Shown: positions 5,466-59,859 of the stretch, in pieces
Numbering within the stretch: position 1 is the first letter of the stretch
How the letters are laid out: the number at the start of each line of letters is the position of its first letter
From: Daucus carota subsp. sativus
Taxonomy: Eukaryota; Streptophyta; Magnoliopsida; Apiales; Apiaceae
NCBI RefSeq assembly: GCF_001625215.2
Contig: NC_030387.2
Coordinates: 29,101,606-29,165,605 of the forward strand
Direction: 5' to 3'
Length of the DNA: 64,000 nucleotides
The notes under the pieces: generated by a model
Seen by the model: only the letters and a program-made list of their open reading frames with translations
What the model was told of the DNA's origin: nothing
The model's database searches: none
Position numbers and translations under genes: made by a program

Positions 5466-5575
5466 AACCAATTAGTGAGAGTTTGTCTAGTCACTAGTCG
5501 CCTATTACAACCACTTCTACATGACTCTACATATACACGATTTATCTCGCTAATTAGGCCATTCAAGGAAACGCA
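5466..5575 (+). promoter_or_regulatory. Conserved CXE promoter block, copy 1
   Basis: About 110 bases before the second CXE start align with 8756-8859 and 12258-12366: GTGAGAGTTTGT, TAGTCACTAGTC, a TATA-like CATATACA, CTCGCTAATTAGGCC and AAGGAAA just before the ATG. The shared block shows that promoter and gene were duplicated together, so the three genes may have overlapping expression. Confidence 0.55.
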
Positions 5576-6559
5576 ATGGAAAGAGATCCTTCTCTCATCG
5601 ATGAACCATACCAGTTCCTCAAACTTGTTGTTAATGCTGACGGTTCACTCACCCGAGGCTTCGAATTCCCCCGAGTGCCTCCCACGCCTCAACTTGCCTC
5701 TGAATCACCCGACTCATCGTCGTCAGAAAAACAACTAGTCCTCTCCAAAGACATTCCTCTTAACACCACCAACCAAACATTCCTACGTTTGTTCCGCCCT
5801 CTGCACCACACTACTAAACTTCCTGTCATCGTTGATTTTCATGGCGGTGGCTTCGTTCTTATGAGTGCTATTTCAGCTCCATTTCATGATATGTTGAACC
5901 GTGCAGCTGTTTTTGCCCCTGCTTTAATCATAACCGTTGAGTATCGTCTCGCCCCTGAACACCGCCTTCCTGCTGCTTATGATGATGCCTTGGAGGCCAT
6001 CATGTGGGTTCGTGATCAAGCCAGAGAAGTTGATGGATCTGATCCATGGATGAAAGAGCTAGCTGATTATTCAAATGTTCATATCATGGGTACTAGTGCA
6101 GGTGGTAACATTGCTTACCACGCAGGTTTACGTGTTCTGGATACGGACATTAGTCCTATCCAGGTGAAAGGGCTGATTCTGAATCAGCCCTTTTTCGGTG
6201 GAGTTCAACGAACTCCATCTGAAGAGAGGTTAAGCAGAAATCCTTATCTACCGGTGACCGTGAGTGATCTCCTTTGGTTGTTGTCATTGCCACCTGGAAG
6301 TGACCGTGATCACGAGTATTCTAACCCATTGGATGTTGTTAATCCGAAGATTCAGAGGCTACCGAGGTGTTTGATTAGAGGGTTTGAAGGGGATGCACTG
6401 GTGGACAGAATTAAAGGGGTGGCCAAGATGTTGGAAGCACATGGCGTGAAGGTGGTGTCCAAGTTCGAAGAAGGCGGATTTCATGGTGCAGAGATGGCTG
6501 ATCCAGTAAAGATTCAAGAATTATTTCTGCAGATCAAGGATTTCGTTTACTCTTCTTGA
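5576..6559 (+). CDS. Carboxylesterase, CXE1-like (alpha/beta hydrolase)
   Basis: Intronless 327-residue class-I carboxylesterase. The oxyanion motif HGGGF is at residues 89-93, nucleophile Ser174 in GTSAGGN, Asp273 in FEGDALVD and His303 in GGFHGA, so the catalytic set is complete. As in its paralogues, the residue before the nucleophile is Thr, where the usual plant motif has Asp or Glu. The N-terminal IDEPYQFL and the C-terminal KDFVYSS are shared with the next two copies. First of the three genes in the 3.3-3.5 kb tandem units; an AATAAAA signal follows about 35 bases after the stop. The substrate is unknown; small acyl esters are likely from the family. Confidence 0.92.
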   Translation: MERDPSLIDEPYQFLKLVVNADGSLTRGFEFPRVPPTPQLASESPDSSSSEKQLVLSKDIPLNTTNQTFLRLFRPLHHTTKLPVIVDFHGGGFVLMSAISAPFHDMLNRAAVFAPALIITVEYRLAPEHRLPAAYDDALEAIMWVRDQAREVDGSDPWMKELADYSNVHIMGTSAGGNIAYHAGLRVLDTDISPIQVKGLILNQPFFGGVQRTPSEERLSRNPYLPVTVSDLLWLLSLPPGSDRDHEYSNPLDVVNPKIQRLPRCLIRGFEGDALVDRIKGVAKMLEAHGVKVVSKFEEGGFHGAEMADPVKIQELFLQIKDFVYSS

Positions 6560-8755: not shown

Positions 8756-8859
8756 GTGAGTTTGTTTAGTCATCAGTCACATCTTACAACAGCTTCTTAG
8801 TCCTATAAGACTCCACAAATACATGATTATCTCACTAATTAAGCCATTTAAGGAAAACA
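8756..8859 (+). promoter_or_regulatory. Conserved CXE promoter block, copy 2
   Basis: Aligns with 5466-5575 and 12258-12366. It shares GTGAGTTTGTTTAGTCAT, CTATAAGACTCCACAA, a CTCACTAATTAAGCC element and AAGGAAAACA directly before the ATG. Confidence 0.55.
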
Positions 8860-9834
8860 ATGGAAGAAGATCTCTCTGTCATTGATGAACCATACAAGTT
8901 CCTCAAGATTGTCCTCAATCCTGACGGTTCACTCACCCGAGATGACCAAGTCCCCCGGGCGCAAGCCATGCCTGAACTAGTATCTGAAATAGCCAACTCT
9001 CCATCACAGAAACAGGTAGCACTCTCCAAAGACATTCCCCTCAACACCACCAACCAAACATTCCTACGCTTGTTCCGCCCTCTCAATCACACTACGAAAC
9101 TTCCTATCATTATTGATTTTCATGGTGGTGGCTTCATTCACTTTAGTGCCACTTCAGCTCGGTTTCATGATTTGTGGAACATTGCGGCTGCTATCACCCC
9201 TTCTTTAATCATAACCGTTGAGTATCGTCTCGCCCCTGAACACCGCCTTCCTGCTGCTTATGATGATGCCCTGGAGGCCATCCTCTGGGTCCGTGATCAA
9301 GCAAGAGGATTTGAAGGGTGTGATCCATGGATGAAAGAGCTAGCTGATTATTCAAACGTTCATATTATGGGTACTAGTGCAGGTGGTAACATTGCTTACC
9401 ATGCAGCTTTACGTGCTCTGGATGTGGACATCAATCCGATCCAGATCAAAGGGCTGATACTAAACCAGCCCTTTTTTGGTGGAGTTGAGCGAAGTCCATC
9501 AGAAGAAAAGTTATATAAAAATCCTTATTTACCAGTGTCTGCTACTGATCTACTGTGGCTGTTGTCATTGCCACTTGGAAGTGATCGTGATCATGAGTAT
9601 TGTAATCCGTTGGATGTTGTTAATCCGAAGATCAAAAGGCTACCGAGGTGTCTGATAAGAGGGTTTGAAGGGGATGCACTGGTGGATAGAATGAAGGCGT
9701 TGGCCAAGATGTTGGATGTGCATGGGGTGAAGGTGGTGTCCAAGTTTGAAGAAGGAGGGTTTCATGGTGCAGCTGATCCAAGTTTGATTCAGGAATTGTT
9801 CTCCAAAGTCAAGGATTTCATTTACTCTTCTTGA
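8860..9834 (+). CDS. Carboxylesterase, CXE1-like (alpha/beta hydrolase)
   Basis: Intronless 324-residue class-I carboxylesterase and close paralogue of the genes at 5576 and 12367. HGGGF is at residues 89-93, Ser173 in GTSAGGN, Asp272 in FEGDALVD and His302 in GGFHGA, so it should be catalytically competent. It differs from its neighbours around the acyl pocket: HFSATSARF here, against SAISAPF in the other two. It also has a three-residue deletion after GGFHGA (ADPSL). Those changes could alter substrate choice, which is inference. Family knowledge places such enzymes in the cytosol. Confidence 0.92.
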   Translation: MEEDLSVIDEPYKFLKIVLNPDGSLTRDDQVPRAQAMPELVSEIANSPSQKQVALSKDIPLNTTNQTFLRLFRPLNHTTKLPIIIDFHGGGFIHFSATSARFHDLWNIAAAITPSLIITVEYRLAPEHRLPAAYDDALEAILWVRDQARGFEGCDPWMKELADYSNVHIMGTSAGGNIAYHAALRALDVDINPIQIKGLILNQPFFGGVERSPSEEKLYKNPYLPVSATDLLWLLSLPLGSDRDHEYCNPLDVVNPKIKRLPRCLIRGFEGDALVDRMKALAKMLDVHGVKVVSKFEEGGFHGAADPSLIQELFSKVKDFIYSS

Positions 9835-12257: not shown

Positions 12258-12366
12258 TGAGTTTGTTTAGTCATTAGTCAAATCTTGCAAACAATTCTTA
12301 GTTCTATAAGAATCCACAAGTACATAGCTATCTCTCACTAATTAATTAAGCCCTTCAAAGAAAACA
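12258..12366 (+). promoter_or_regulatory. Conserved CXE promoter block, copy 3
   Basis: Third copy of the block at 5466-5575 and 8756-8859, with GTGAGTTTGTTTAGTCAT, CTATAAGAATCCACAA, CTCTCACTAATTAATTAAGC and AAAGAAAACA before the ATG. Confidence 0.55.
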
Positions 12367-13347
12367 ATGGCAGCAGATCTCTCCCTCATTGATGAACCTT
12401 ACAAGTTCCTCAAAATTGCTCTCAATCCTGACGGTTCACTCACCCGAGAGGACCAAGTCCCCCAGGCGCCTGCCATGCCTGAACTGGCCTCAGAAACAGC
12501 CAACCCTCCATCGCAGAAACAAGTAGCACTCTCCAAAGACATTCCCCTAAACGCCACAAACCAAACATTTATACGTTTGTTCCGCCCTCTCAAACACACT
12601 ACTAAACTTCCTGTCATCATTGACTTTCATGGTGGTGGCTTCATTCTTTATAGTGCCATTTCAGCTCCGTTTAATGATTTGTGGAACATCGCGGCTGCTG
12701 TCACCCCTGCTTTGATCATAACTGTTGAGTACCGTCTTGCCCCTGAACACCGCCTTCCTGCTGCTTATGATGATGCCATGGAGGCCATTCTTTGGGTCCG
12801 TGATCAAGCCAGAGACGTTGACGGATGTGATCCATGGATGAAAGAGCTAGCTGACTATTCAAACGTTCATATCATGGGTACTAGTGCAGGTGGTAACATT
12901 GCTTACCATGCAGGTTTACGTTCCCTGGATGTGGACATCAGTCCGATCCAGATCAAAGGGCTGATACTAAATCAGCCCTTTTTTGGGGGAGTTGAGCGAA
13001 CCTCATCAGAAGAAAAGTTAAGCAGAAATCCTTATCTACCAGTGTCTGCTAGTGACCTGATGTGGCTCTTGTCATTACCTCTTGGAAGTGACCGTGATCA
13101 CGAGTATTCTAATCCGTTGGATGTTGTGAATCCGAAGATCACAAGCCTACCGAGGTGTCTGATAAGAGGGTTTGAAGGGGATGCACTGGTGGATAGAATG
13201 AAGGGGTTGGCCAAGTTGCTGGATGCACATGGGGTGAAGGTGGTGTCCAAGTTTGAAGAGGGAGGGTTTCATGGTGCAGAGGTGTCTGATCCAAGGGTGG
13301 TCCAGGAATTGTTTTCCCAGCTCAAGGATTTCATTTACTCTTCTTAA
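12367..13347 (+). CDS. Carboxylesterase, CXE1-like (alpha/beta hydrolase)
   Basis: Intronless 326-residue class-I carboxylesterase. HGGGF is at residues 89-93, Ser173 in GTSAGGN, Asp272 in FEGDALVD and His302 in GGFHGA. It is closest to the gene at 8860 in sequence and promoter, so the two probably arose by the latest duplication in the array. It ends SQLKDFIYSS then TAA. An AATAAAA signal lies about 55 bases past the stop. No sign of decay. Confidence 0.92.
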   Translation: MAADLSLIDEPYKFLKIALNPDGSLTREDQVPQAPAMPELASETANPPSQKQVALSKDIPLNATNQTFIRLFRPLKHTTKLPVIIDFHGGGFILYSAISAPFNDLWNIAAAVTPALIITVEYRLAPEHRLPAAYDDAMEAILWVRDQARDVDGCDPWMKELADYSNVHIMGTSAGGNIAYHAGLRSLDVDISPIQIKGLILNQPFFGGVERTSSEEKLSRNPYLPVSASDLMWLLSLPLGSDRDHEYSNPLDVVNPKITSLPRCLIRGFEGDALVDRMKGLAKLLDAHGVKVVSKFEEGGFHGAEVSDPRVVQELFSQLKDFIYSS

Positions 13348-14719: not shown

Positions 14720-16119
14720 TATCTTTTACGAAAAATCCCGCAGGCCGCGACTAACAAAGAAACTTACAACAATGAAACAAAGAAACTTACAAGTTACAAC
14801 AATATGATTACAATAGTCGTGCCATGCCGTCCCGGTTTAGAGGCAGGCCGTGCTCATTCCGTGCTGGCACAGAACTGATACGGTGCAAGCCGTACCGGGC
14901 TTGTTGTAAGACAACACCTCCAATTAATGGTGGCAATTTACAACTTGTTGAGATTTATCGACAATCCTGAAATGCAGGATCACAACAAGAACTTCCATTA
15001 GCTCGTATGATATTGTGAAGGTAGAACAGGTTGAGCATATTTAGGCTATCACTTCATCCTCTAATTACCTTTTCAATGTCATATAATTTTCATACAATTT
15101 TACTCCTTCCTAGCAAAAGAAGCAGTCAGTTCACAACTATTACGTAAACATTACTGAATTACAGAGATATTGCCAGAAGTAGAGGCTAAGGCCTGAGCGA
15201 ACATTTTTGATGCGAAATTATTATTTGAACCACCACACGATAGGGAGCCTATACAGATAAGAAAGCTATCAACCGAATGCCCCGGGCCTATTTCTCCAGT
15301 ATTCATCCATGTGAATAAATCCCATTAGTAGAAGTGTCTTTTAGCTCCTGTTGCAGGATTCCATTGAGCTCAATGATCAGTTGATCCTTACTAACAACCA
15401 TCACCACATGTAACTATGTCAGCAAGTTTGTTTTTATCATTTCGCGACTGAAAAAGATGGTTGATGCATTTGTAAGGGATCAAGCTAGCCTTCAAGATCA
15501 TCCATCAGATTACAATTGCAGTAAAATTTATATGATATTTGTAAAAGAAATCAGAGTATATTACATGATGATATGTGTGGTCCATACCGTTGTTGCTTTG
15601 CAGGGTCCCCAATGGAAATGATCTCTCTGTATCAAGAACTATAATGGGTATGGACCGCGTGGTAGACTGATAGTGGTTGTTTGGGCAGATTTGTTGATAC
15701 TGATGAGACCTTACCTTGATCAAGCTGTAAAATTTTATCTGCAAATTACACTCTTGGTGTACTAATGGAAACGCAATGTAAATGATATTACCCAGCGTCA
15801 CTTCTGTAGGCATTTTGCAGCAATCTGTGTTACCAATGGATTTTCTTGAATTTGCAAATACTAAACCTTCAAAAATCAGGATAAAATTAGAAGGAAATTC
15901 CAGTTTTATCTTTAAACCCAGCCTGTTGTAGTTGATTTAAGTTGTAAAACCAACTTGAAGCAACGATTAACAGTTTAGGGCCCTCGATGGACTAATGATA
16001 TCACTCACTCTTATGTATATGTGATCTGTATTTGTTCGTACTATGTTAGGTGGACCTCTATGCCTGAAAATATCAAGATTCATAATTAACTACAAAATCA
16101 GTCTTTAACCATTCAAGAC
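14720..16119. other. Intergenic, CXE-less remnant of tandem unit
   Basis: The blocks at about 15175-15360 and 15455-15490 match the spacer blocks after each CXE gene, but no CXE follows. So a further tandem unit lost its gene, or only the spacer was copied. A GC-richer patch near 14820-14920 with several GCCGT motifs is unexplained. Upstream of 16120 is the leader of the HPR3-like gene. Confidence 0.4.
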
Positions 16120-17298
16120 ATGCATCACTGCTCTAACAAAATGGCTTCATCCCCTGACAAAATCTCTCCAGAACTCCCTGTAGTCCTGATTCTTAAACCC
16201 CCGGAGGTTTTCAAGGTCCACGAGGAACTTTTCTGCCAGAGATTCCATTTTCTACGAGCCTGGGAATCCACACTTCCCACTGACCAGTTCCTTACTACTT
16301 ATGCTCAGTCCATTCAAGCACTCTTCTGTAACTCTTTTACTCCCATTCCTGCTCATGTCATCCGTCTGCTTCCTTCACTTCGTCTTATAGTTACTAGCAG
16401 TGTTGGCGTCAACCACATTGATCTCCACGAGTGTCGGAGGCAGGGGATCAAGGTGGCTAATATTGCTAAGGTATTTACAGATGATGTTGCAGATATTGCA
16501 GTGGGGTTATTGATTGATGTGCTTAGGAAAGTGAGTGCTGGTGATCAGTATGTTCGTTCTGGTTCTCGAATTTGGTCTGATTTTCCTCTCGGTTATAAGG
16601 TCAGATAAATCATAGTACATAAACCAATTTCATTTCTTTTATTATGCAATCAGAAGAATTATTTGCTAATTTTTTATTTTTTTTTATAATTGTGGCCTGC
16701 AATGATTTGGTTCATGTTGAGTAGTTCTTCGTATTCTTATATCAAATTAAAAGTACAATTCTGGTTCCAGTTGGGAGGCAAACGAGTCGGGATTGTTGGA
16801 CTAGGAAGTATAGGCCTGGAAGTCGCGAAAAGGCTTGAAGCATTTGGTTGCATTGTCTCATACAACTCGAGGATGAAGAAACCCTCGGTTCCATTCCTAC
16901 ATTATGCCAATGTCTGTGAACTAGCTTTAAATTCTGATGTACTCATCATTTGTTGTTCATTGACAGAACAAACCTACCACATGATTAATAGAGAGGTCCT
17001 GTCAGCTCTGGGGAAGCACGGGTTCATTGTAAATATAGCACGAGGGAGTATCGTTGATGAGAAAGAGCTGGTGCGGTGTTTAGTGCAAGGAGAGATTGGT
17101 GGTGCTGGTCTTGATGTGTTCGCTGATGAGCCTAATGTTCCGGATGATTTGTTTGAACTGGAGAATGTTGTTCTGTCACCACACCGCGGTGTCTTTACAG
17201 ATGAAACTATGTGGGAATGCTATGAGCTTGTTTCAGGGAACTTGGAAGCTTTTTTCTCTAATAAGCCCTTACTGACTATGGTCCACAATGATGACTGA
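16120..17298 (+). CDS. D-2-hydroxyacid dehydrogenase, HPR3-like (hydroxypyruvate/glyoxylate reductase), two exons
   Basis: Exon 1 is 16120-16599 and exon 2 16771-17298, with a 171-bp GT-AG intron in phase 0 between LGYK and LGGKRVG. The product is 335 residues, or 328 if Met8 (16141) is used; the family is usually near 320. It has the NAD(P) motif GLGSIG (residues 170-175) and the catalytic set Arg251 (IARGS), Glu280 (ADEPN) and His298 (SPHRG). HPR3-type enzymes use NADPH to reduce hydroxypyruvate and glyoxylate, and relatives (HPPR) reduce hydroxyphenylpyruvate in the tyrosine and rosmarinic-acid routes. The family fits HPR3 best by GLLI..LR and the SPHRGVF end, but substrate is not decided by sequence. 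Its paralogue lies at 19623. A transposon sits 6 bases past the stop. Confidence 0.9.
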
Positions 17299-18992: not shown

Positions 18993-19622
18993 TTCGTCCC
19001 TGATTGCCGGTATTTCTAGCCCGTTTACCCTCTGAGTTCTGATAATATTTCTCATGTTGTGGTCCTGCAGAGAGTCTTACCTTATTTTCTAAAAATAAGT
19101 TTTAAAAAAATATATAAAAATGTGTATTTTCTTTCGAGTTCACCCATATTCATGAAGAAAAAAAATATTTCTCAAAAGCATGAAATGTGTTTATGTGTGG
19201 GGTGTTGGATGAACTTGAAAAAAATATGCAACTTAGAGGGTTAATGTGTGTTTAAAAAAATATGAAAAAAATATTCGTCGTATTTGAGGGGCTGAACCGT
19301 GCAAAATGGTACTTGAGGGGTTCATGTGAATATTGGTGTCAACTTAGAGGGTTAATGTGTGTTTTAGCCTTTATATAATTTCAACTAAATATCATCATAT
19401 GATTTAAAATTTTAATCAAATATAATCAGGTATTTTAAAATAATTTATCTAAATACTTAATAATTAATATTCTGGTATACTTTTCAAAATCGAAAATCTA
19501 TACATAGGGGTCCCACGATCACAAAAATCCTCGGGAATTAATTCAGTACAGCCCAGCAAGGCAGCAATCACCAACTGAGCTCCAACCTCAAACCACCCAA
19601 AACAGGAAAACACCCCCCCAAA
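18993..19622. other. Leader and promoter of second HPR3-like gene
   Basis: No gene. A sentence-like direct repeat, AACTTAGAGGGTTAATGTG, occurs at about 19230 and 19329, with poly-T/A tracts between. Proximal to 19622 the DNA becomes C-rich, as expected for a 5' UTR. Confidence 0.4.
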
Positions 19623-21240
19623 ATGGCAGCTCCCGACCAAAGCACCTCCCCCCAACTCCCCCAAGTCCTCATCCTCAAACCCCCCCACGTCTTCAAACTC
19701 CACCACCATCTCTTCTCCCAGAGATTCCACTTTCTCAGAGCCTGGGAATCTCCTCTTCCCACTCCTCACTTCCTCTCCACTCATGCTCACTCTGTTCAAG
19801 CGCTCTTCTGTAATGCCTACACTGATATCACTGCTGACGTCCTCACCTTGCTTCCCTCGCTTCGATTCATCGTTACGAGCAGCGTTGGAGTTGATCATAT
19901 TGATTTGGTTGAGTGCAGGCGCCGCGGGATCAAGGTGGCTAATGTGGCTGATGTGTTCACGGATGATGTGGCGGATGTTGCTGTGGGATTGTTGATTGAT
20001 GTGGTTAGGAAGATTAGTGCTGGGGATAAGTTTGTTCGTGCTGGATTCTGGGCTTCGTCTGAGTTTCAACTCGGTCACAAGGTCAAAATGTTTATATGTT
20101 TTCATGTGTGCATAATTTTCATTTTGTGGTATGGTATGAATTGTAATTTTGTGTCCGGATTTGGGGGTTTTATTGTGCATTTTGTGGGAAACAAGAAATT
20201 TCGGAAAGGGGGATAATTCTTTACTTGTGTCTTTAAATTCAAATAGATAATGAAATACATAATGAATCGTTTGATATCGGGAAAATGATGCAAACTTTGG
20301 AAGAAAAGTCGCAACTACTTGAATTGCTATGAAATCATACTTCCTTTTGACATTAATTTATCAGCAGTCTTGTAAGGTGGATTGATGGTGGATATCCCCC
20401 TCTTTGTAATTTTATTGGGGCTTCGAGCATCAGTGCAGCATGGGTGCGTGTGAGTATTTGAATTTTTGTTAAAATTATGCCTTAATAAGAATCACAGTTA
20501 AATTGGAAAACTTATTGTAGTTACACATACCACGTAGACATGTACTAGTGAAAGAAATGTGTAATAGGAGGCGTCTGGAAAGGTAAAATGATATTGGTTT
20601 CTTATACGTTTTGTGCTAGAAATTTTTCACTGAAAAATGGACTGCAGGAATTTGGTTCATGCCCCATAATGCTTCCTCTACTTGTTTTAATCTAACAATG
20701 CAAGTTTCGTTGCAGTTGGGAGGCAAACGAGTTGGGATTGTTGGACTAGGAAGTATAGGCTTCCAAGTTGCAAAAAGGCTTGAAGCATTTGGTTGCATTG
20801 TCTCATATAACTCAAGGACGAAGAAGCCATCAGTTCCATATCCTCATCATGCTGATGTTCGTGAACTAGCTTTAAATTCTGACATACTTGTCATTTGTTG
20901 TGCATTAACGGACCAAACCTACCACATGATCAATAAGGAGGTTCTGTCAGCTTTAGGGAAGCAAGGGTTCATTGTTAATGTAGCTCGTGGGGCTATTGTT
21001 GATGAGAAAGAACTGGTGCGCTGTTTGGTGCAGGGAGAGATTGCTGGTGCTGGTCTTGACGTGTTTGCTGATGAGCCCAATGTTCCAGACGATTTGCTTG
21101 AACTGAATAACGTTGTTCTGTCTCCTCATCGAGGGGTCTTCACAAAAGAATCTTTATGGAATTCCTACGAACTCATTTCAGAGAACCTAGAAGCATTTTT
21201 CTCAGATAAGCCCTTGTTAACTCCGGTCCTCAACGAATGA
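19623..21240 (+). CDS. D-2-hydroxyacid dehydrogenase, HPR3-like, two exons
   Basis: Exon 1 is 19623-20081 and exon 2 20716-21240, giving 327 residues. The 634-bp GT-AG intron is in the same position and phase as in the paralogue at 16120 (LGHK then LGGKRVG). The GLGSIG nucleotide motif is present, and catalytic Arg244 (VARGA), Glu273 (ADEPN) and His291 (SPHRG) are intact. It starts MAAPDQSTS, without the seven extra residues of the first copy. The exon 1 DNA is C/G-rich compared with its neighbour, which opens a long but meaningless antisense frame. The role is as for the paralogue: reduction of hydroxypyruvate, glyoxylate or an aromatic 2-oxo acid with NAD(P)H, probably cytosolic since no targeting signal is seen. 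Confidence 0.92.
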
Positions 21241-36466: not shown

Positions 36467-37975
36467 ATGGATTATTTAGTAGCTCTGGTTGCAGCTCTGG
36501 TAGCAGCTCTGGTTGCAGCTCTGTATTATCTAGCAGCTCTAGTTGCAGCTCTGGTAGCAGCTCTGGTGGGAGCTCTGGTAGCACCTCTGGTACTGGGTTT
36601 CACAGATCAATTTGTTAGAGAGTTTGCTACACGTGCATTCGACTATGCAGCCCCAGCAGCTTGGGATTTTTGTAAAGCTTCCTTTGAAAGAATGTTCAGA
36701 CAGGCGAGAGAAGATCCATGGCGACAACTTCTGCCTGCAGACCATTTAAATTCATACCTACTCCAGACAAAAAGCGGAAGTCATGCAGAGATTTTAACTG
36801 TCCATGTGCGCAGAAATGTGTCAAATATTGAAGAGGCAAGGCGGGCAAACCTTTATGTGAAGTCTAATATTCGGCATTTAGTGTTAAGCTGGGAGAACAA
36901 TGAAGATGAAAGGGGAGATGGAGAATATAAAGATGAGGATGTGATGAACGGATTGGAAGCTCACCCAAATTTAAAAGAATTGACTGTTGAAGGCTTTATG
37001 GGGAAGAATCTTGCATCATGGATTACAAAGATGAACAATTTGGTCAAAATCACCTTGAAAGACTGCAACAGGTGTGAAGTACTTCCACCACTTTCTAGAA
37101 TTGAGAGTTTGGAAATCAAGAACTGTCTGAGGTTGAGAAAGATCCCGGATAGTTGTTGCAGAGCCTTGAAGGAAGTTATCATTGGAAATATGGAGAGCAC
37201 CATGATACTAGAAACTATCAGCAAAAATGCTAGCTCACTCACCACTTTAAAGCTGGGAGGAGGTAAATCATGTCGTTCTACTTCTTCTTCTTATTATTCT
37301 TCAGACATGGAATCTATAATTAACGTGCTGCTAAGAAGCAATTCGCTGTCTTTGAGCACATTAGAACTAATTGAATGCAAGAGTGTGCAACGACTAACTG
37401 TTGGTGTCTCTCTTGAACGGTTATGGGTTTATGATTGCCCTAATTTAATGAGCATTAAACTAGATGATGAAGGATCAGCTGGTCTCAAATCTCTTTCAGT
37501 CAGAAAATGCTCCTCCTCTCTTTTAAATACGGTATCTGCCCAAATCCAGAGTTCCACACTTGAAAGATTGAAATTAGGCCCCTTCTTGGGGAACATAGAT
37601 GAATTTCCATGGCCATTCTCTTCTTCTTCAAATTCATTTCCCAACCTAGATTCACTGGAATTGTTTGGATGGGATAAGGTAAAGTCAAGACCGCTCTTTG
37701 AGCAACTTCAGTCCACCTTCCCTCGATTGAAGGAATTGATTATAAATAATTTCAAACAAGTGAAAGATCTCCCTGATTTAATATCCAGACTTCTATTCCT
37801 CGAGAAATTAATAATTTTGGATTGCAATAATTTGGATTGTTTGCCCAAGTTTGAAGAATCGCATAGGCTTCAACTACTGAAGATAATTCGTTGTCCAAGC
37901 TTGAGAGAGAGATGCATGAAGGACAGTGGACCAGAATGGTTCAAGATTAAGCATATTCCAATTATAAAATGGTAA
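36467..37975 (+). CDS. LRR-only CNL derivative with hydrophobic repeat N-terminus
   Basis: Intact 502-residue frame. Residues 4-45 are a run of AALV units (VALVAALVAALVAAL, then YYLAALVAALVAALVGALV), coded by a 12-bp minisatellite with GCAGCTCTGGT(T/A) core. It is long enough for one or two membrane-spanning helices. Residues 46-115 (GFTDQFVREFATRAFDYAAP onward) are helical-looking and unlike NB-ARC. From about residue 120 (NVSNIEEARRANLYVKS) the protein follows the CNL-family LRR domain to its usual end GPEWFKIKHIPIIKW, with LASWITKMNNLVKI and NRCEVLPPL. No P-loop, kinase-2, GLPL or MHD motif is present. It could be a membrane-held LRR decoy or regulator, or simply a relic with a fortuitous start; the open frame over 1.5 kb argues for recent selection. 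The start codon follows a TC-rich tract. Confidence 0.7.
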   Translation: MDYLVALVAALVAALVAALYYLAALVAALVAALVGALVAPLVLGFTDQFVREFATRAFDYAAPAAWDFCKASFERMFRQAREDPWRQLLPADHLNSYLLQTKSGSHAEILTVHVRRNVSNIEEARRANLYVKSNIRHLVLSWENNEDERGDGEYKDEDVMNGLEAHPNLKELTVEGFMGKNLASWITKMNNLVKITLKDCNRCEVLPPLSRIESLEIKNCLRLRKIPDSCCRALKEVIIGNMESTMILETISKNASSLTTLKLGGGKSCRSTSSSYYSSDMESIINVLLRSNSLSLSTLELIECKSVQRLTVGVSLERLWVYDCPNLMSIKLDDEGSAGLKSLSVRKCSSSLLNTVSAQIQSSTLERLKLGPFLGNIDEFPWPFSSSSNSFPNLDSLELFGWDKVKSRPLFEQLQSTFPRLKELIINNFKQVKDLPDLISRLLFLEKLIILDCNNLDCLPKFEESHRLQLLKIIRCPSLRERCMKDSGPEWFKIKHIPIIKW

Positions 37976-38062
37976 GTTTTGCATCTCTAATTTATCCCTT
38001 CCCTCTATAATTTTACTATCTTAAAGTCTTACTAATGTATTATTTGAATTTTTTTGTTTCAG
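37972..38062 (+). other. Putative 91-bp intron overlapping the stop codon
   Basis: The coding end TGG TAA G contains a donor GTAAGT; an acceptor TTGTTTCAG follows 91 bases on. Splicing would replace the TAA by W-E-stop. The same arrangement and length occur in three paralogues. Confidence 0.5.
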
Positions 38063-39626
38063 GGAATGAAAGAAGTTGGCGTGAACAGTTCAACAATCTA
38101 GAAATACAACTGATATTATTGTAAGTACATAACACATATGAAATGTATTGAGTAATCTTAGACACTACTTGTAGTATTCATTCTTTCTTCTCTTGATCTT
38201 ATTTTTTTGTTCAAACTACAAAGATGTTTACACTTGACATCGTTTTGTGTGCCAATTCTTATCTTTGCTCTTACCCCCGGTTTATAGTTGCATCAAATCA
38301 AATAGCATAGAGAGTGTGTTTTATCTCTTTAACACGTGCATCTGTTTCTATATTATTTGACCAACTGTCGGGATTTAGAGAACAGTGACTGTAACTAGTT
38401 GCCCTGTGTTGCTTTGAGTTCCCAACATCAAGATTGTCTGGACATACAAAAAAAAAACACAATGAACATATCATTAACAACATAGCACATCGTAAAAAAA
38501 GTGATTTCTCACCAATACAATATTTAAGTTAATATCATTGTTAAAAGATAATAAATCAAATCTTAGTATAAAAATTGAATATATACAAATAATCAAAATT
38601 TTACAAGTATTGTTCAGTTGTCAGTCTTTAGGGTTGTTTCACTATTATGTATTTCTGTCTGATACTGCTATTTTGCAGGTATCTATGGATGCTGACTGAA
38701 TTATGCATTGTTGCTGCTAGGTGCTTACATGTTCAGTGTTCACTAGCTACGGTATTTTCTTTCCTGTTTTTTTTTTTTTTTTTTTTTTTGTGCCAAGTCT
38801 ATCAACTGTAATATCATTTCAAATTTTCATTGCTATTGTTGCCAGAAGCTTGAGGGACTGATTTAAATTTTGAATATGTTGTTATTGACTTATTGAGTTA
38901 TTTGGCTTTACTGGTCATAGTAAATTTGCATTTGCACATTATCTTAATATTAATCATGAATATAAGTTTCCGGTGAAATGTGTAGACACCATAGGCCTGC
39001 TCCATTTCACCATTTGTTCTTCTATCTCCTTGTTTCTGGCTAAATTAATATGCTTACAATCTGTTGTATGAAAGAATATAGCCCCTGTGTTTCAGGATAT
39101 TGATATTTAAGTATTTTTTCAATTAAAATTTAGGTATTTTTGTCCATGCCCTTCCTATTATAAAAATAACATACAATTAAACAAGACTTACTTGTGGGAC
39201 TAAATTAATAAATCAGTCCCATATATTGCATTTGGTCTAATAAGAAATTTCCTCATATCTTTTATTTTGCCATGTTATTTCCTTATATTATTGTTGTCCG
39301 TGCTTGTCAAAGCCAAAATTCCATTTTGCTTTAGTCCCAATTTCGCCAGTTGGAAATATCCTCATATCTTTCTTTTCTTTTGTGTTGTTGGTGCTTGTGG
39401 AGCGTGTGAATAGTGTATAACTTATTTGCTTGAAGATAGTTTTGCTTGAGATTTCAGCTTCGAATGCTCAGAAACAGAAATGGTGATATCATCTAAGCAC
39501 ACTTGATACATTTTTGTGTTCTTGTTTATTTGTTTGATGTACTAGTTATTAGGTTAATTATATCAAGAAATAGAAGAAGACTATGGCAATATAGATGCAT
39601 TATAAAAGAGCTACATGTGCTAAAAC
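38063..39626. other. Intergenic, CNL 3' flank
   Basis: No gene. Includes the shared 3' block near 38365-38440 and a long T run at about 38767-38789. The open frame 38298-38483 is not conserved. Confidence 0.4.
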
Positions 39627-44000: not shown

Positions 44001-44467
44001 AACTACCCCCCTCTCTTCTAGATGGGATATTTGCCCAAATTCAGAGTTCCAGGCTTAAATATCTGAGATTGGGTCCCTTGTCAGAATTGGATTATATTCG
44101 GTGGCCATTCTCTTCTTCTTCTTCTTCTTCTAACCTAATTCAGCTAAGACTGTATGGGTGGGAAGAGGATAAGTCATTAGCGCTCTTTGAGCAACTCCCG
44201 TTCAACGCCTATCCTGCGTTGACTGACTTGACTTTACAATATTTCAAAGGAGTGAAAGCTCTTCCGGATTCAATAGCGAAGCTTCCATCTCTCCGGAGAT
44301 TAAGAATTGAGGATTGTTATAATTTGGAGAGTTTGCCTGCATTTGAAGAATCACATACCCTTCAATTACTGTATATAGTTGGGTGTCCTGTTCTGAGACA
44401 AAGATGCCGTAAGGGTCAAGGGCCAGAATGGTTCAAAATTCAATACGTTCCAACAATAATTTGGTAA
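41026..44467 (+). pseudogene. CC-NB-ARC-LRR resistance gene (RGA-like), frameshifted in CC end
   Basis: The CC domain starts MGEAIVADLAGGLLGKVVSL and runs 88 codons to 41292. Relative to the paralogue at 46255, 26 bases are missing near 41285, which changes frame. The rest (from about 41290 to 44467) is open and carries GMGGQGKTTLAR (P-loop), MWITVSDDFDFIKIL, FLLILDDVWNE (kinase 2), GSCILVTTR, CGGLPLAIK, the CFAYCSIMP region and CKMHDLVHD (MHD), followed by about 20 LRRs ending GPEWFKIQYVPTIIW. Resistance proteins of this type detect pathogen effectors in the cytoplasm. As read, only a CC peptide, or an NB-LRR from an internal ATG, could be made. Near identity of the NB-ARC with the next copy points to very recent duplication or gene conversion. 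Confidence 0.88.
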
Positions 44468-44786
44468 GCTTTGCATGTAAAAATTTATCTATTCTCCCTC
44501 GAAATTAATCTCTGTTTGTACTATTTAATTGATATATCTGATTTTGTTAAATCAGGAATCGTCCGGGGTGCCAGACTAGCAGTAGCTTGGTGAATGGTGA
44601 TCGACTCTACTCCATCTTCCCTGCCTTGACTGATTTGTATGTAGTAAACTTGAAGAAGAGAAAGCTCTCCCGAGTTCAATAGCAAACCTTATATTGCTCA
44701 CGCAGCTAGTTATCTGGAATTCGGAGAATTTGGAGAGTTTGTCCATGTTTGAGAACCATGGGAATTTGCCAATTCTGAAAGAATGA
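44464..44786 (+). other. Putative 92-bp stop-overlapping intron and downstream LRR tail
   Basis: Donor GTAAGC inside TGG TAA G at 44464; acceptor AAATCAG ends at 44555. Splicing would add about 36 residues (WNRPGCQTSSSLVNGDRL onward). Further on, 44680-44786, lies a decayed LRR remnant (ENLESLSMFE) also seen after the copies ending at 49695 and 57849. Confidence 0.5.
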
Positions 44787-45744: not shown

Positions 45745-46254
45745 TCGAGTTCAGTGATCTAATAATCTCATGACGCAGCTCTTGGAAGCTGGAACTGTAC
45801 GATAACAGATGCAGAAGTCATGCTTACGTATAGCCGGTACGTTCCAATTAACTGTATATACTTTTGAATTGTTCATGGAGCATAACGAGAGAAGTAGTTG
45901 GCATATATTCACCATTTAATTTGTCATTTTCTCTTAAATTATTAAATCCATGTGCTGGGCTCAGTGATAACGTGTTTGCCAGTCCTGATCTGATCATATG
46001 TTTGCTCCAATTAATAAGGCAAAGGCTCTGGAGTATACACATGAATGAATAAATAAATAAATAAAGTCAAACAAATTAATCAAAATTCTCTGCACATTGC
46101 ATCAAGTAGCCAATATTAAAATGGAAAACAAGGGTTGATTCAGCAACTAATCTATAGTACCACTTTATTTAGAAACTATTGTAGCCCATATTACATTTTT
46201 ATCATCTCACCAAATATATCTCAAGAATTATACCAGTGATCAATACAAGAAAAG
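45745..46254 (+). promoter_or_regulatory. CNL upstream region, copy 2
   Basis: Second copy of the block at 40520-41025, differing at few positions. Contains the same AATGAATAAATAAATAAA tract and the same bases before the ATG. Confidence 0.6.
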
Positions 46255-49200
46255 ATGGGCGAGGCTATTGTAGCTGATTTGGCTGGCGGATTGCTGGGCA
46301 AGCTTGTTTCACTTGCAGCAGAGGAAGTCGTCCAGGCCTGGAATTTTCATGAAGATCTCGACACACTCCACCAGCGCATGGAATCAGTCGGGGCTCTCTT
46401 GTACGATGCTCATACCAAGAATTTAATCATGTCTACTGCCAAAAACTGGTTTGACAAACTTGAAGCTGTTGCGAATGTTGCTAATGTATTTATGGATGAA
46501 CTTGCATATGAAGTCACTCGAAGAAAAGCGGAGAATCGCCATAAGTCACTTGACTTCTTCATTCCTACCAAAAATACCCTACTATATCGTCTCAAGGTAG
46601 CTCATAAAATCAAGTCCATTCAAGCTTCCTTTGATGAAATTTTCAAATCGGCAGTAGATCTCGGACTACAGCCTGTAGCATATTTAAGGTCAACGGTGCA
46701 AGATAGAGACATCCGCAGCACCCCTTCATATGAAGACAAGTCAATAATAGTTGGACGAGATGAAGATGTATCGTACCTAGTTCAAACAGTGTGCAAAAAA
46801 CATGAAGAGGATTTAGAAGTCATTGTTGTAGCGGGAATGGGAGGTCAAGGCAAGACAACTCTTGCTCGTATGGTTTTCAATAGTGATAATGTCATTACCA
46901 TGTTCCCGGATCAGAGGATGTGGATTACTGTATCAGATGACTTTGACTTCATTAAGATTTTGAATCAGATGGTAGAATCACTTACTTTAACCAACTTGGG
47001 GTTGACAAATCCACAAGCACTTACCCGTAAACTTCAGGAGAGTCTAAAGGGAAAAAAGTTTCTGCTCATACTTGATGATGTCTGGAATGAAGAATCGGTG
47101 AAGTGGGATAACCTGACAAATTCTTTGCTTGAAATTGGTGGTGACAAAGGAAGCTGTATTCTGGTTACCACCCGTAAACAAGAGGTCATTATTGCCATGA
47201 GAAGTTGTGTGTCTTATTGGCTGGAAAAATTAACAGAGGATGAAAGTTATGAACTGTTCAAGAAAATAGCATTTTCAGATGGAGGAGTTTTAGAGACCGA
47301 GGCATTTGCGACCATCGGGAGAAGCATGGTGAAAAGGTGTGGTGGCCTACCTCTGGCAATAAAGGCATTGGCGGGGTTATTATACTCGAAGAAGTCTGAG
47401 CAAGAATGGTTGGAGATCCAATGCAGTGAAACATGGGAATCAAAAAGTGTATTGCCTTCCTTGAAGTTATCATATGATAATTTACCTTCTTTGTCATTGA
47501 AACAATGTTTTGCATATTGCTCTATTATGCCAAAGAATTCATTCATCTATAAGGATGAACTGATACAGATATGGTTGGCATTAGGGTTCCTCCTGCCCCC
47601 AAGAAGAAGTATTGCACTGACGGAAGATATTGGCAGCAAATACTTCAAAATTCTGTTGGGAAATTCTTTGTTACAAGACGAAGAAAAGGATGAATGTGGG
47701 AACATCATCAGATGCAAGATGCATGATCTAGTGCATGATCTTGCACTAGAAGTATCTAAACATCACTCGGTATCTGTGAAGGCAGGTGAAGAGCTGAGTC
47801 ATGATTGCAAGGCTGTATACATGAGGCTTGATAACGGGGTTTCAACAATCAAACCAACAATTCTGAAGAGAGCCTTTGAGAGAGTACAAGTATTATATGC
47901 AGGGGCAGATATCCTTCTTCATGTGTTACCTTATCTCACACACCTGACTGTTCTGGTGTTAAATGCGGATGATAATCAGGTTGCCCAGGAGTTGCCATTT
48001 TCACTACGCAAGATGAAATATCTTAAACATCTCGATATTTCTCACTACAAATTGCCTACTGACATCACAGAACTGTACAACTTGCAGACACTGAGAGTTG
48101 GAGACCTAGATGAGATTCCAAAAAGGTTTAGCAACTTGATTAATCTGAGACATTTGTACATTCGTAACAACTATGGTAAAAAATGCATGTTTAATGGGAT
48201 AGAAAGGTTGATTAGTCTGCAAACACTTCCTTACTTTGTTGTGAGTAAAAATCAAAATTGTCTCGTTGGACAACTGGGAGGGTTGAAACATCTTAGTGGT
48301 GAGATTAGACTCTATGGCCTTTACGAGGTGGCAAATATCGAAGAAGCAAGAAAAGCAAAGCTTTGTGAGAAGTCCAGTATTCAGTGTTTACAGTTGAACT
48401 GGAGGAATACTGAATTTGGTCACGAAGACAGTCAGCACAATGATGAGGATGGGAGCAATGAAGACGAAATGGAAGACAAAGAATACAACGACCAGGATGT
48501 GATGGAAGGATTGGAACCTCACCCAAATCTGAAAACATTGATGATTGTCGGTTTTAGAGGAAAGAAGTTTGCATCTTGGATTACAGTGATGCTGAACTTG
48601 GTGAAACTCACATTGAGAAATTGCAACCGATGTGAAGTACTTCCACCACTTAGTCACCTTCCCAAATTGAGGGAGATAGTGATTGAAGGGATGAGAAATC
48701 TTAGGGTTGTGGGAGATGTTTTCTGTGGTGGCCAAAGTGTATTTCCTCAACTTGAGAGGTTGAATATAGAGAATTGTCCAAGGTTGAGAAAGATACTGCC
48801 TAGTTGCACAGGGGTTAGTTCTCAGAGTGAATTTCCTAAACTTGAGATTTTGAAAATTACAAATTGCCCAAGGTTGAGAACGATCCCGAAAAGTTATTTT
48901 CCGTCCTTAAAGAATTTGGTTATTACTGATTTGGAGAGTGATATGATGTTGGGAACTATGAGCAGATATGTTAGCTCATTAACCTCTCTATCGCTTTTGA
49001 GGATCGGTGATTGAGGAGGAGACTCATCTTTATCTTCGTTTTCGAACATGGAATCCATGATTAACAATTCTCTGTCTTTGACCGAATTAGAGCTATATGA
49101 CTGCAAGGGCTTAAAATGTCTAACCATTGGTGTCTCCCTTGAATACTTATTCATCGATGATTGCCCGCATCTAACTAGTATAAATTTAGTTGAAGGGTCA

Positions 49201-49695
49201 GCTGGTCTCAAAATATTTGGGATTGGGATACTCCCCTCCTCTCTTCTAGATGGGCGATTGTCCCAAATTCAGTGTTCCAGGCTTGAATGTCTGAGGTTAG
49301 GTCCCTTCTCAGATGAATTTGATTATATTCCGTGGCCATTCTCTTCTTCTTCTTTTTCTAACCTATCTATGCTATATCTGTATGGGTGGGAAAAGGTTAA
49401 GTCATTAGTGCACTTTGAGCAACGCCTGTTCACCGCCTTTCCTGCCTTGGGTTCTTTGACTTTATGTGGTTTCGAAGGATTGAAAGCTCTTCCGGATTCA
49501 ATAGCAAAACTTCCATCTCTCAAGGTATTATTCATCTTTGAATGTAATAATTTGGAGAGTTTGCCTGTATTTGAAGAATCTCATATCCTTCAAGCACTGG
49601 CTATAATTGAGTGTCCTGTTCTGAGACAAAGATGCTGTAAGGGTCAAGGCCCAGAATGGTTCAAAATTCAATACGTTCCAAATATATATTGGTAA
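46255..49695 (+). pseudogene. CC-NB-ARC-LRR resistance gene (RGA-like) with one nonsense codon
   Basis: One continuous frame of 1146 codons, broken only by TGA at 49012-49014, where the paralogues have GGA. As read, the product is 919 residues. CC domain with MGEAIVADLAGGLLGKLVSL; P-loop GMGGQGKTT (194-202), kinase 2 LILDDVW (271-277), GLPL (364-367) and MHD (489-491). LRRs run from about 530. An acidic insert (GHEDSQHNDEDGSNEDEMED) enlarges one LRR relative to the copy at 41026. One LRR unit (FPSLKQL..PNLEEWEAA) has been lost here. The C-terminal part (49048-49695) keeps the family ending GPEWFKIQYVPNIYW. A truncated CNL may still signal, or the allele is dead; sequence alone does not say. 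All nucleotide-binding motifs are intact. Confidence 0.9.
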
Positions 49696-49988
49696 GCTTT
49701 GCACGTCAAATTTATCTCTTCTCCCTCTCAATTAATCTCTGTTTGTACTATTTAATTGATATATCTGATCTTATTCAATCAGGGATCTTGAGAGCTCGTA
49801 GGGAGCTTTTTAGCTTGGTGAGACTCCATCTTCCCTGCCTTGACTGATTTGGTAAAGAAAAGAAAGCTTTCCCGAGTTCAATAGCAGACCATCTATTGCT
49901 CAAGCAGTTAATTATTCAGAACTCTGAAAATTTGGAGAGTTTGTCCATGTTTGAGAACAACGAGAATTTGGCAATTCTGAAAGAATGA
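49692..49988 (+). other. Putative 91-bp stop-overlapping intron and LRR tail
   Basis: Donor in TGG TAA G at 49692, acceptor TTCAATCAG ending at 49782. Splicing would add WDLESS then stop. A decayed LRR tail (SENLESLSMFENNENL) follows at about 49910-49988. Confidence 0.5.
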
Positions 49989-56472: not shown

Positions 56473-57849
56473 ATGCAGCTTAAAGGAAAGAAGTTTCCAG
56501 CTTGGATTACGATGATGCTGAACTTGGTGAAAATTACATTGAGAGATTGCAACCGATGTGAAGTACTTCCACCACTTGGTCACCTTCCCAAATTGAGGGA
56601 GATAGCGATTGATGGGATGAGAAATGTTAGGGTTGTGGGAGATGATTTTTGTGGTGGCCAAAGTGTATTTCCTCAACTTGAGAGGTTGAAAATTGAGAAT
56701 TGTGCAAGGTTGAGAAAGATACTGCCTAGTTGTTTTCCGTCATTGAAACAACTCTTCTTTTGGCAATTGCCAAATCTAGAAGAATGGGAAGCAGCAGTTA
56801 TAAGTACAGCGGTTAGTTCTCAGAGTGGATTTCCTAAACTTGAGAGTTTGGAAATCTGGAGATGTCCAAGGTTGAGAAAGATACTGTCTAGTTGTTTTCC
56901 GTCATTGAAACAACTCTACTTTAGGGAATTGCCCAATCTAGAAGAATGGGAAGCAGCAGTTATAGGTACAGGGGTTAGTTCTCAGAGTGGATTTCCTAAA
57001 CTGGAGAGTTTGGAAATTTTGGAATGTCCAAGGTTGAGAAAGATCCCGAATAGTTATTTTCCGTCCTTAAAGAAGTTGGAATTAACTGATTTGGAGAGTG
57101 ATATGATGTTGGGAACTATGAGCAGAGTTGTTAGCTCACTAACCTCTCTATTGCTTATGAGTATTGGTGACGGAGGAGGAGACTCGTCTTCTTTATCTTT
57201 GTTTTCGAATATGGAATCCCTGATTAACAATTCTCTGTCTTTGACCAAATTAGAGCTAATTGATTGCAAGGGCTTAAAATGTCTGACCCTTGGTAGCTCC
57301 CTTGAACACTTAAAAATTTATAATTGCCCGCATCTAATTATTATAAATTTAGTTGAAGGGTCAGCTGGTCCCAAATCTATTGAGATTGGGGAACTCCCCC
57401 CCTCTCTTCTAGATGGGGGATTTGCCCAAATTCAGAGTTCCAGGCTTGAATATCTGGGATTAGGTCCCTTCTCAGATTTGGATTATATTCCGTGGCCATT
57501 CTCTTCTTCTTCTAATCTAATTCTGCTAGACCTGTTTGGGTGGGAAAAGGTCAAATCATTAGCGCTCTTTGAGCAACCCCTGTTTATCGCCTACCCTGCC
57601 TTGACTATCTTGAATTTACATGATTTTGAAGGAGTGAAAGCTCTTCCGGATTCAATAGCAAAACTTCCTTCTCTGCAGGATTTAAGCATCTTTGATTGTA
57701 AGAATTTGGAGAGTTTGCCCCCATTTGAAGAATCACATACTCTTCAAACACTGAATATAGTGCGGTGTCCTGTTCTAAAACGAAGATGCAGTAAGGGTCA
57801 AGGGCCAGAATGGTTCAAAATTCAATACGTGCCAAGTATAATCTGGTAA
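56473..57849 (+). pseudogene. C-terminal half of CNL gene (LRRs only), open frame of 458 residues
   Basis: Open from LKGKKFPAWITMMLNLVKIT to the family end GPEWFKIQYVPSIIW. The CC, NB-ARC and first LRRs are missing, and the junction at about 56470 is abrupt, so the ATG at 56473 is probably fortuitous. It contains two tandem copies of a 162-bp unit (starting at 56710 and 56872) that codes LRKIL..CFPSLKQL..PNLEEWEAAVI and QSGFPKLESLEI. The uninterrupted frame suggests recent truncation. A role as an LRR-only protein cannot be excluded. Confidence 0.8.
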
Positions 57850-58148
57850 GCTTTGCATGTCAAATTTATATCTTCTCCCTCTCAATTAATCTCTGTTTGT
57901 ACTATTTAATTGACATATCTTATTTTGTTAAATCAGGGATTATAAGAGGTGGCAGTGAAATTTTTAGCTTGGTGATTGTCTCTACTCCATCTTCCCTTGT
58001 ATGTAGTAAATTTAAAGAAGAGAAAGCTCTCTTGAGTTCAAAAGCAGACCTTCTATCGCTCAAGCAGTTAGTTATCTGGAATTCTGAAAATTTGGAGAGT
58101 TTGCCCATGCTTGAGAACAACGGGAATTTGCTAATTCTGAAAGTATGA
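57846..58148 (+). other. Putative 91-bp stop-overlapping intron and LRR tail
   Basis: Donor in TGG TAA G at 57846, acceptor TTAAATCAG ending at 57936. Splicing would add WDYKRWQ then stop. A decayed LRR tail (LKQLVIWNSENLESLPMLEN) lies at 58050-58148. Confidence 0.5.
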
Positions 58149-58835: not shown

Positions 58836-59859
58836 ATCATGCAGTATCTCTTTCTTGTTACTATTCTAGAGTTATGTTTGATAAATCGCAGTACTGTTAC
58901 TTTGATCTCATTCTTCTGTTCAAAGTGCAGAACCAATTACAATTAATAATTGTGTTGTGTGCCGATCTACATGGAGTGAGATATCATAGTGTAATAATGG
59001 TTATTTTTGAGGGAAATACTAATCTTTGCTGTTACTCACAATTTACAGTTGCATGAAAGTGTGTTTTATCTGTTTAATCCGCTCATCTGTTTCTACATTG
59101 GACCAGCCTCCAGGATTAAGAGAACAGTGACTGTAGCCAGTTGCACTCTGCTTCTTTGAGTTTCAAATATCCAAATTATTTCAGAATACCAAGGATACGG
59201 CATGAATCATGATGGCGTATCTCAGTGACTTGTTTGTCGTTGTCACAGTAATTGAATCTTGATTACTGGATCCGCTGCTTGAGTGCATGTCATCCTGTTT
59301 TTTCATCAATATTTCTAATGAAAATTAAATACTCAAGTGCAGTAATGCCTTTAATTGTCTACTCCTTTGCTGAGATTGCCTTGTGGGAAAAAAAAGGAGC
59401 TCCCTGAACTCAATAAGAGAATCCAAGTTATTGGCATACTGCACTTTTCAAGTTGGCACTTTTTCTTAAATTTAAAATAGAGTACCTTTCTTCTATCTCC
59501 TTGTTTCAATGTAGTTGCTTTCATTTTGGCTAAATTAACGATCTCTATGCTCCCCAGACTCCTTTTCACTGTAATATCAAACATTAAGATATCAAAATTT
59601 GGTTATTATTATATTATAATAATTATTATTATATTATTATGAAAACCATTCTACACCTGTCAGGATTTTGTAAAGTCGCGATCATCTCCAACGCCAACAA
59701 ACTATTCATTTTAATTTTTATAACTCTTAAAATTTAATTTACTAAAAACTCCATAATAATTTCCATAGCTGTTTTACATCGGTAAATCAGTTGAAGCCCA
59801 TAGATTTTAACAATCTCTGGGGAGGTCTAGACAGAGGAGCTCCAAAACCAGTTACAACA
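58836..59859. other. Intergenic, CNL flank
   Basis: No gene. Contains the shared block CAGTGACTGTAGCCAG near 59128 and an ATT-rich low-complexity run at about 59600-59640. Confidence 0.4.

What the first reader, a model, noticed from the sequence alone, without database searches (positions are those of the whole stretch)
36467..37975. LRR-only resistance-gene derivative with a minisatellite-coded hydrophobic N-terminus
The sequence shows an intact 502-codon frame in which CC and NB-ARC are replaced by about 42 residues of AALV repeats coded by a 12-bp minisatellite, then about 70 residues of unknown helical-looking sequence, then a normal family LRR domain. In a cluster where most copies are broken, this one is open. 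The hydrophobic stretch is long enough for a membrane hairpin. A membrane-anchored LRR without a nucleotide switch could be a decoy, a regulator of the intact CNLs, or a new receptor type; this is inference. The repeat also makes the anchor length easily variable between alleles.
Basis: partly seen in the sequence, partly recalled or inferred. Interest (0 to 1): 0.8.

Follow-up and report, generated by a model that had tools for sequence, protein, structure and literature searches.

The report
Hydrophobic-repeat cap on truncated plant immune gene
This is an open gene left over from a plant disease-resistance receptor that has lost its nucleotide switch and carries a repeat-coded greasy N-terminus; it may be a membrane-bound modulator of its neighbours, but it could equally be a decaying gene fragment.

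Summary
The 502-codon frame (36467-37975) and its in-frame 12-bp/54-bp minisatellite are real; a genome-wide pattern search found the repeat only here. Correction: residues 68-112 are not unknown. They are a remnant of the CC-domain end joined to the start of NB-ARC, then to the LRR (47 of 10,000 shuffles score as well; 6 of 10,000 for the sister copy). Part of the LRR is also missing near residue 210. So this is an internal-deletion CNL derivative with an N-terminal cap (residues 1-67) of unidentified origin. Its one close sister copy, 1.6 Mb away, is 93% identical and broken, and shares everything from codon 68 on but not the cap. The window branch (7N:6S) leans toward constraint without significance (p=0.19); the sister looks neutral (16N:7S). 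Truncated NLRs with tested functions are known: wheat RXL and Arabidopsis NRG1C. Best readings, equally likely: an RXL/NRG1C-like LRR modulator with a membrane anchor, or a still-open pseudogene. Expression, localisation and alleles could not be tested.

The parts
36467..37975 (+). Open reading frame, 502 aa plus TAA stop; ATG context AAACATGG
36471..36592 (+). 12-bp minisatellite (GTW GCA GCT CTG) with a 54-bp higher-order duplication, coding residues 2-42 (hydrophobic A/L/V block, candidate membrane anchor)
   Evidence: TRF; pattern found only here in the genome; hydrophobicity; AF2 helix 2-43 at low confidence
36593..36667 (+). Residues 43-67, origin not identified; not shared with the sister copy
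   Evidence: CC profile matched as well by 2877 of 10,000 shuffles
36668..36802 (+). Residues 68-112: remnant of the end of the CC domain (ASFERMFRQARE...LLPADHL) joined to the NB-ARC start (SYLLQTKSGSHAEILTV); the linker between them and everything from the P-loop on is missing
36794..37114 (+). LRR_R13L1-DRL21 domain, residues 110-216
   Evidence: Pfam
37088..37099 (+). Internal LRR contraction at about residues 208-211 relative to family CNLs; the sister copy runs through the same join
37097..37972 (+). C-terminal LRR region, residues 211-502, homologous to the LRR of the cluster CNLs (46-58% identity in the long rows of C7 28.2-29.5 Mb)
   Evidence: AF2 pLDDT 70 or more in 27 of 35 ten-residue blocks from residue 161 on
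37972..38062 (+). Candidate 3' intron (91 bp): donor TG|GTAAG overlaps the stop codon, acceptor CAG|GGAATGA; same arrangement in the 3 paralogues looked at. If spliced, the product would end ...KWE instead of ...KW
   Evidence: sequences printed, read by eye; splicing itself is inference

Best explanation
The gene is a CNL (Rx-type CC, NB-ARC, LRR) of the local cluster that suffered a large internal deletion joining the end of CC and the strand before the P-loop to the R13L1-type LRR, plus a second deletion within the LRR [supported by alignment and shuffle tests]. Its 5' end carries a cap of residues 1-67, of which 2-42 are coded by an expanded in-frame minisatellite forming a long hydrophobic block [sequence shown; helix predicted with low confidence]. 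Proposed working (inferred): the block inserts in an endomembrane or the plasma membrane as a signal anchor and leaves the LRR on the cytosolic side; lacking P-loop and nucleotide switch the protein cannot form a resistosome by itself, and it acts through its LRR as a competitor, scaffold or modulator towards effectors or the intact sister CNLs of contig C7, broadly in the manner of NRG1C or RXL. The 12-bp unit lets anchor length change without loss of frame.
For: Open 502-codon frame with a strong start context. CC-end/NB-start remnant: CC profile score reached by 47 of 10,000 shuffles for the window copy and 6 of 10,000 for the sister copy; long-gap chain 3 of 1000 and 0 of 1000; of the four codons in 70-112 with amino-acid differences between the copies (74, 75, 86, 91), the sister has the CNL residue at two, D74 and V91. 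The deletion state is shared with the sister, hence older than their split (NG86 dS 0.112). The sister shows three length changes that break frame, a loss of about 420 bp and 16N:7S (omega about 1.0); the window copy has no frame break and 7N:6S (omega about 0.5). Hydrophobic block with KD means above 2.3. 3' splice-like signals as in three paralogues. Precedents: RXL, NRG1C, signal anchors of flax L6 and M.
Against: No expression data of any kind. 7N:6S is not significantly below neutral (one-sided p 0.19) and does not differ significantly from the sister (Fisher p 0.47). The modelled chance of staying open by luck ranges from under 0.001 to 0.15 over 12 assumed settings, 10 of 12 at or below 0.05, and supposes that the whole ORF existed since the split, which is not shown for the cap. 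Six ATGs lie between a TATA-like site at 36232 and the start, none opening a frame over 33 aa. Other LRR-only frames in the family are open. Forcing NRG1C to one compartment, the plasma membrane included, weakened its inhibition, which counts against an anchored NRG1C-like competitor. ADR1-L3, another truncated NLR, appears non-functional. The cap is absent from the sister copy, so its age and constraint cannot be tested. K/R and D/E are balanced after the block (7 and 7 in residues 46-90), so topology is uncertain.
Confidence: 0.42

Rival explanations
1. A decaying CNL fragment: a deletion derivative whose LRR frame happens to be still open, and whose upstream sequence, including a minisatellite that by unit length cannot break frame, happens to be read through. 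No useful protein is made.
For: The other family members in the window are partial or carry a frame break; the sister copy is a pseudogene; other LRR-only frames of 375-459 aa are open; the N:S counts do not exclude neutrality; upstream ATGs. A 12-bp or 54-bp unit keeps frame without selection.
Against: The window copy shows no frame break since a split at dS about 0.11, while the sister has three plus a large deletion; 10 of 12 modelled settings put this at a chance of 0.05 or below. Good start context and kept 3' splice-like signals.
Confidence: 0.42
2. A working partner protein of the RXL type: the product forms hetero-complexes with an intact cluster CNL and is needed for its resistance, rather than inhibiting it.
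For: RXL in wheat has CC and LRR with NBD and HD1 missing and is required together with Pm5e. Intact-length family frames lie on the same contig, the nearest listed one at C7:29.18 Mb, about 43 kb away.
Against: RXL keeps a standard four-helix CC and the WHD; here only about 25 residues of the CC end are recognisable and no WHD is hit; no head-to-head partner: 20 of 20 family matches are on the same strand.
Confidence: 0.1
3. A stand-alone membrane-anchored LRR receptor or decoy that binds ligands or effectors by itself.
For: Hydrophobic N-terminus plus an LRR domain modelled with fair confidence.
Against: No signalling or kinase domain among the Pfam hits and an LRR of the intracellular NLR kind; the structural matches listed are LRR proteins of many kinds, NLRs included, with TM-scores of at most 0.45 by query length (best 50 of 611 listed).
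Confidence: 0.04

Closest known systems
[quoted passage not shown] PMC11933841, abstract and passages seen
   Same: CNL-derived, NB-ARC lost while CC-side and LRR sequence remain, open frame in an NLR locus
   Different: RXL keeps a full CC and the WHD and is head-to-head with its partner; here only the CC end and NB-ARC start are recognisable, with a repeat-coded hydrophobic cap and no head-to-head partner in the window
NRG1C of Brassicaceae; PMC10561179 and PMC12315475, passages seen
   Same: LRR retained, N-terminal signalling domain and most of NB-ARC missing, neighbour of full-length relatives; chain 8yl7_C/8yn0 (At5g66890, NRG1C) is the second best PDB sequence match
   Different: NRG1C derives from an RPW8-type helper NLR, is nucleocytoplasmic and conserved across a plant family; no hydrophobic cap is mentioned in the passages seen. 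Here no orthologue could be sought
Flax L6 and M with N-terminal signal anchors; PMC3801107, passages seen
   Same: Hydrophobic N-terminal stretch proposed to anchor an NLR in endomembranes
   Different: L6 is a TNL with its NB domain (domain make-up of L6 and M recalled in part); here the hydrophobic block is about 41 residues, minisatellite-coded, on an NB-ARC-less derivative

Membership tests
CNL (CC-NB-ARC-LRR) as a complete receptor | NB-ARC domain with P-loop | tested here: not met
   No NB-ARC hit in Pfam at E up to 1 for the 502-aa protein; only about 17 residues preceding the P-loop are recognisable
CNL-derived member of the local R13L1-type family | LRR_R13L1-DRL21 domain and LRR homology to cluster CNLs | tested here: met
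   E 1.7e-32; 46-58% identity in the long rows of C7 28.2-29.5 Mb
CNL-derived member of the local R13L1-type family | N-terminal Rx-type CC | tested here: inconclusive
   CC end recognisable within residues 68-95; residues 1-42 resemble the CC profile no better than 591 of 10,000 shuffles, 43-67 no better than 2877
RXL-type CC-LRR NLR with broken NB-ARC | CC plus LRR with NBD and HD1 missing | tested here: inconclusive
   NB-ARC and winged-helix hits absent, LRR present; a complete CC is not recognisable
RXL-type CC-LRR NLR with broken NB-ARC | Head-to-head genomic pairing with an NLR partner | tested here: not met
   20 of 20 matches of the CNL query in the window are on the + strand, the strand of the gene
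NRG1C-type truncated modulator | Negative regulation of full-length relatives | not testable with these tools
   needs experiment
Signal-anchored NLR (L6/M type) | N-terminal hydrophobic stretch long enough to span a membrane | tested here: met
   KD 19-residue means 2.3-2.8 at ten sampled starts from 1 to 28
Signal-anchored NLR (L6/M type) | Actual membrane attachment through the N-terminus | not testable with these tools
   needs localisation experiment

The most novel reading that the evidence does not exclude
An NB-ARC-less CNL derivative has become a membrane-tethered LRR regulator by carrying an N-terminal cap whose transmembrane block is encoded by a genome-unique, frame-proof minisatellite, possibly acquired around its duplication, so that anchor length can be tuned by repeat slippage between alleles.
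Probability: 0.2. Interest if true: 0.7.

Novelty: new variant of a known kind. Interest (0 to 1): 0.4.

Why it matters
NLR clusters are full of truncated copies that are usually set aside as pseudogenes, yet a few (NRG1C, RXL) have tested functions. A copy that lost the switch, stayed open while its sister broke, and carries a slippage-prone hydrophobic anchor would show how truncated NLRs are re-purposed, and it makes a simple prediction (repeat-number alleles alter localisation) that can be tested directly.

Tried and rejected
Foreign-gene origin of residues 43-110: residues 42-116 searched against the whole genome gave only the gene and its sister, and the 5' DNA likewise. The upstream 1.2 kb matched only itself, though a finer comparison with the fetched stretches showed two short weak similarities to flanks of family copies (54 and 49 bases); no repeated mobile element was seen. 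A query with the repeats shortened gave two further weak hits (E 0.8 and 6.2), whose frames I only glanced at and judged chance. Pfam on residues 1-109 and 43-109 gave only hits far below cut-off (best: O-antigen ligase, E 0.016, 15.4 against 31.7 bits), judged compositional.

Results against the CC-remnant reading: with ordinary gap costs the protein comparison of residues 41-112 was notable (2 of 200 shuffles) for only 1 of 18 long family frames, and the other 17 had 9 or more of 200; at DNA level 4 of 18 had 0 of 100 shuffles as good at the same place. With the long-gap chain 8 of 14 frames placed residue 112 four residues before the P-loop, 2 within nine, and 4 matched elsewhere in NB-ARC. 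The profile bit scores are low in absolute terms (2.1 and 4.6). The frame giving the best chain was not among the 11 in the profile.

Is the cap an expanded CC helix 1? It resembles the family start in pattern but is not distinguishable from shuffles (591 of 10,000); left open.

Does the sister keep the ancestral 5' end? Its upstream stretch does not resemble the CC domain either (1983 of 10,000) and matched only itself. The boundary near codon 68 coincides within about 10 bases in the window copy, the sister and the CNL comparison, so I cannot say which 5' end is older.

Structure: AF2 on a five-row alignment gave under 65 pLDDT for the blocks of residues 1-110, so the fold of the cap is not established; Foldseek gave LRR proteins of many kinds, NLRs such as NRC2, NRG1A and NRG1C among them.

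Dropped before counting: of 70 differing sites, 13 had no outgroup base (six of them at the non-homologous edge, codons 66-68), 21 were ambiguous, and 36 were polarised. In one search the unpolarised row (46N:23S) includes edge sites and is not used. NG86 omega for the pair (0.46) ignores transition bias; by hand, 36N:21S at codons 113-400 against the neutral ratio gives about 0.8, so I rely on the branch counts. 12 copies served as outgroups and 11 complete N-termini went into the CC profile, from the stretches fetched, not all 92 matches.

No cross-species test: I had no other plant genome to search. Literature searches: (open-licence papers only); listings were judged by title.

Full report
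What is there. The frame 36467-37975 is open from ATG to TAA (502 codons). A 12-bp unit, about ten copies with a 54-bp higher-order duplication, codes residues 2-42. Both unit lengths are multiples of three, so the array keeps frame by arithmetic. A pattern of two adjoining units gave 7 overlapping matches in the 441-Mb genome, all 7 in this array (reverse strand and control 0). The first 45 residues hold 15 A, 12 L and 9 V, and the 19-residue Kyte-Doolittle means are 2.3-2.8 at ten sampled starts, above the recalled transmembrane rule of thumb of about 1.6.

What the rest is. Residues 110-216 are an LRR_R13L1-DRL21 domain (E 1.7e-32) and 211-502 are the C-terminal LRRs of the local CNL family (46-58% identity in the long rows of C7 28.2-29.5 Mb). 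Relative to the family CNLs there is a contraction at about residue 208-211. With a CC profile from 11 family N-termini, 47 of 10,000 shuffles scored as well as the window copy and 6 of 10,000 as well as the sister copy; with a long-gap alignment, 3 of 1000 and 0 of 1000. Controls: residues 43-67 2877 of 10,000, residues 1-42 591 of 10,000, the sister's own upstream 1983 of 10,000; reversed segments scored low. A DNA match of 32 bases in the same codon phase agrees (E 0.011; 9 of 1000 codon shuffles as good). These tests use related data and are not independent; bit scores are low in absolute terms, and with ordinary gap costs only 1 of 18 family frames gave a notable protein score. On balance the gene is a CNL derivative that lost its NB-ARC, most of its recognisable CC and part of its LRR, with residues 1-67 of unidentified origin in front.

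The sister copy. Only one other place in the genome carries codons 68-400 closely: C7:27.56 Mb, 92.6% identical over 1001 aligned columns. It has three length changes that are not multiples of three, a loss corresponding to 37663-38083, and stops in frame. It lacks the cap; its homology starts at about codon 68. At the 3' end the window locus continues to resemble the 3' flank of another family copy beyond the point where the sister stops (window 38254-38435 against 59015-59177, sister ending at 38358), which suggests that the window locus is the parent there. In the tree of 14 rows the two form a lineage of their own (100/100), with end branches 0.026 (window) and 0.039 (sister).

Is it under selection? 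Polarised by outgroup majority, the window branch has 7 nonsynonymous and 6 synonymous changes, the sister 16 and 7 (36 of 70 differing sites polarised); the neutral expectation with the observed transition bias is 69% nonsynonymous. That gives omega of about 0.5 and 1.0, in the direction expected of a gene and a pseudogene, but neither the window branch against neutrality (one-sided p 0.19) nor the difference (Fisher p 0.47) is significant. The modelled chance of remaining open runs from under 0.001 to 0.15 over 12 assumed settings, and supposes an ORF as old as the split, which is shown only for codons 68 on. Other LRR-only frames in the family are open too (375, 415, 459 aa). The evidence leans to a gene but does not settle it.

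Expression signals. The start context is AAACATGG; a TATA-like site lies at 36232, but six ATGs stand between it and the start, none opening more than 33 codons. At the 3' end the donor TG|GTAAG overlaps the stop codon and an acceptor CAG ends 91 bases on; the three paralogues printed show the same arrangement. These are consensus matches, not evidence of transcription.

How it would work. Steps shown: loss of the switch, retained LRR, hydrophobic cap. Steps inferred: membrane insertion, cytosolic LRR, modulation of relatives. RXL shows that a CNL can lose NBD and HD1 and be required in a pair (passages); NRG1C shows that an LRR with little NB-ARC can inhibit full-length neighbours (passages), though forcing NRG1C to one compartment weakened it and the truncated ADR1-L3 appears inert; L6 and M show N-terminal anchors on NLRs (passages). 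I give this reading 0.42 and the open-pseudogene reading the same.

Novelty. Truncated and NB-ARC-less NLRs are a known kind; the repeat-coded hydrophobic cap is what differs. The literature searches were narrow: one search found 0 papers, one search found 1 and one search listed 10 of 408, judged by title only; so I claim no more than that I did not meet the combination.

Noticed in passing
37972-38062, and about 44464-44555, 49691-49782, 57845-57938: In the gene and three paralogues the stop codon TAA is part of a splice-donor-like TGGTAAG followed by an acceptor-like CAG about 90 bases on, so retained and spliced forms would end differently.
   Followed up: partly
589-1569, 5558-6556, 8839-9831, 12346-13344: Four tandem carboxylesterase-like alpha/beta hydrolase frames (two scanned by Pfam: Abhydrolase_3; the others by similarity to the eye), with fragments of the CNL family between them at about 2.8-3.6 and 5.0-5.4 kb.
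   Followed up: partly
16090-17295 and 19542-21240: Two tandem D-2-hydroxyacid dehydrogenase genes in two exons each (Pfam hits for both pieces of the first; the second by eye).
   Followed up: partly
46240-49695: Nearly complete CNL interrupted by one in-frame TGA at 49012-49014.
   Followed up: no
4171-4545: Complex tandem array built on GTTGCAAATGAG-like units, including a 114-bp period at 93% match.
   Followed up: no
L013 5000-6500 (minus strand): The broken sister copy lies just downstream of exons that look like a mitochondrial Tim21-type import protein (recognised from memory, not searched).
   Followed up: no
L013 4290-4476 (minus strand): The sister copy's frame continues upstream of the homology break into an unrelated stretch that matched nothing else in the genome search.
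   Followed up: partly
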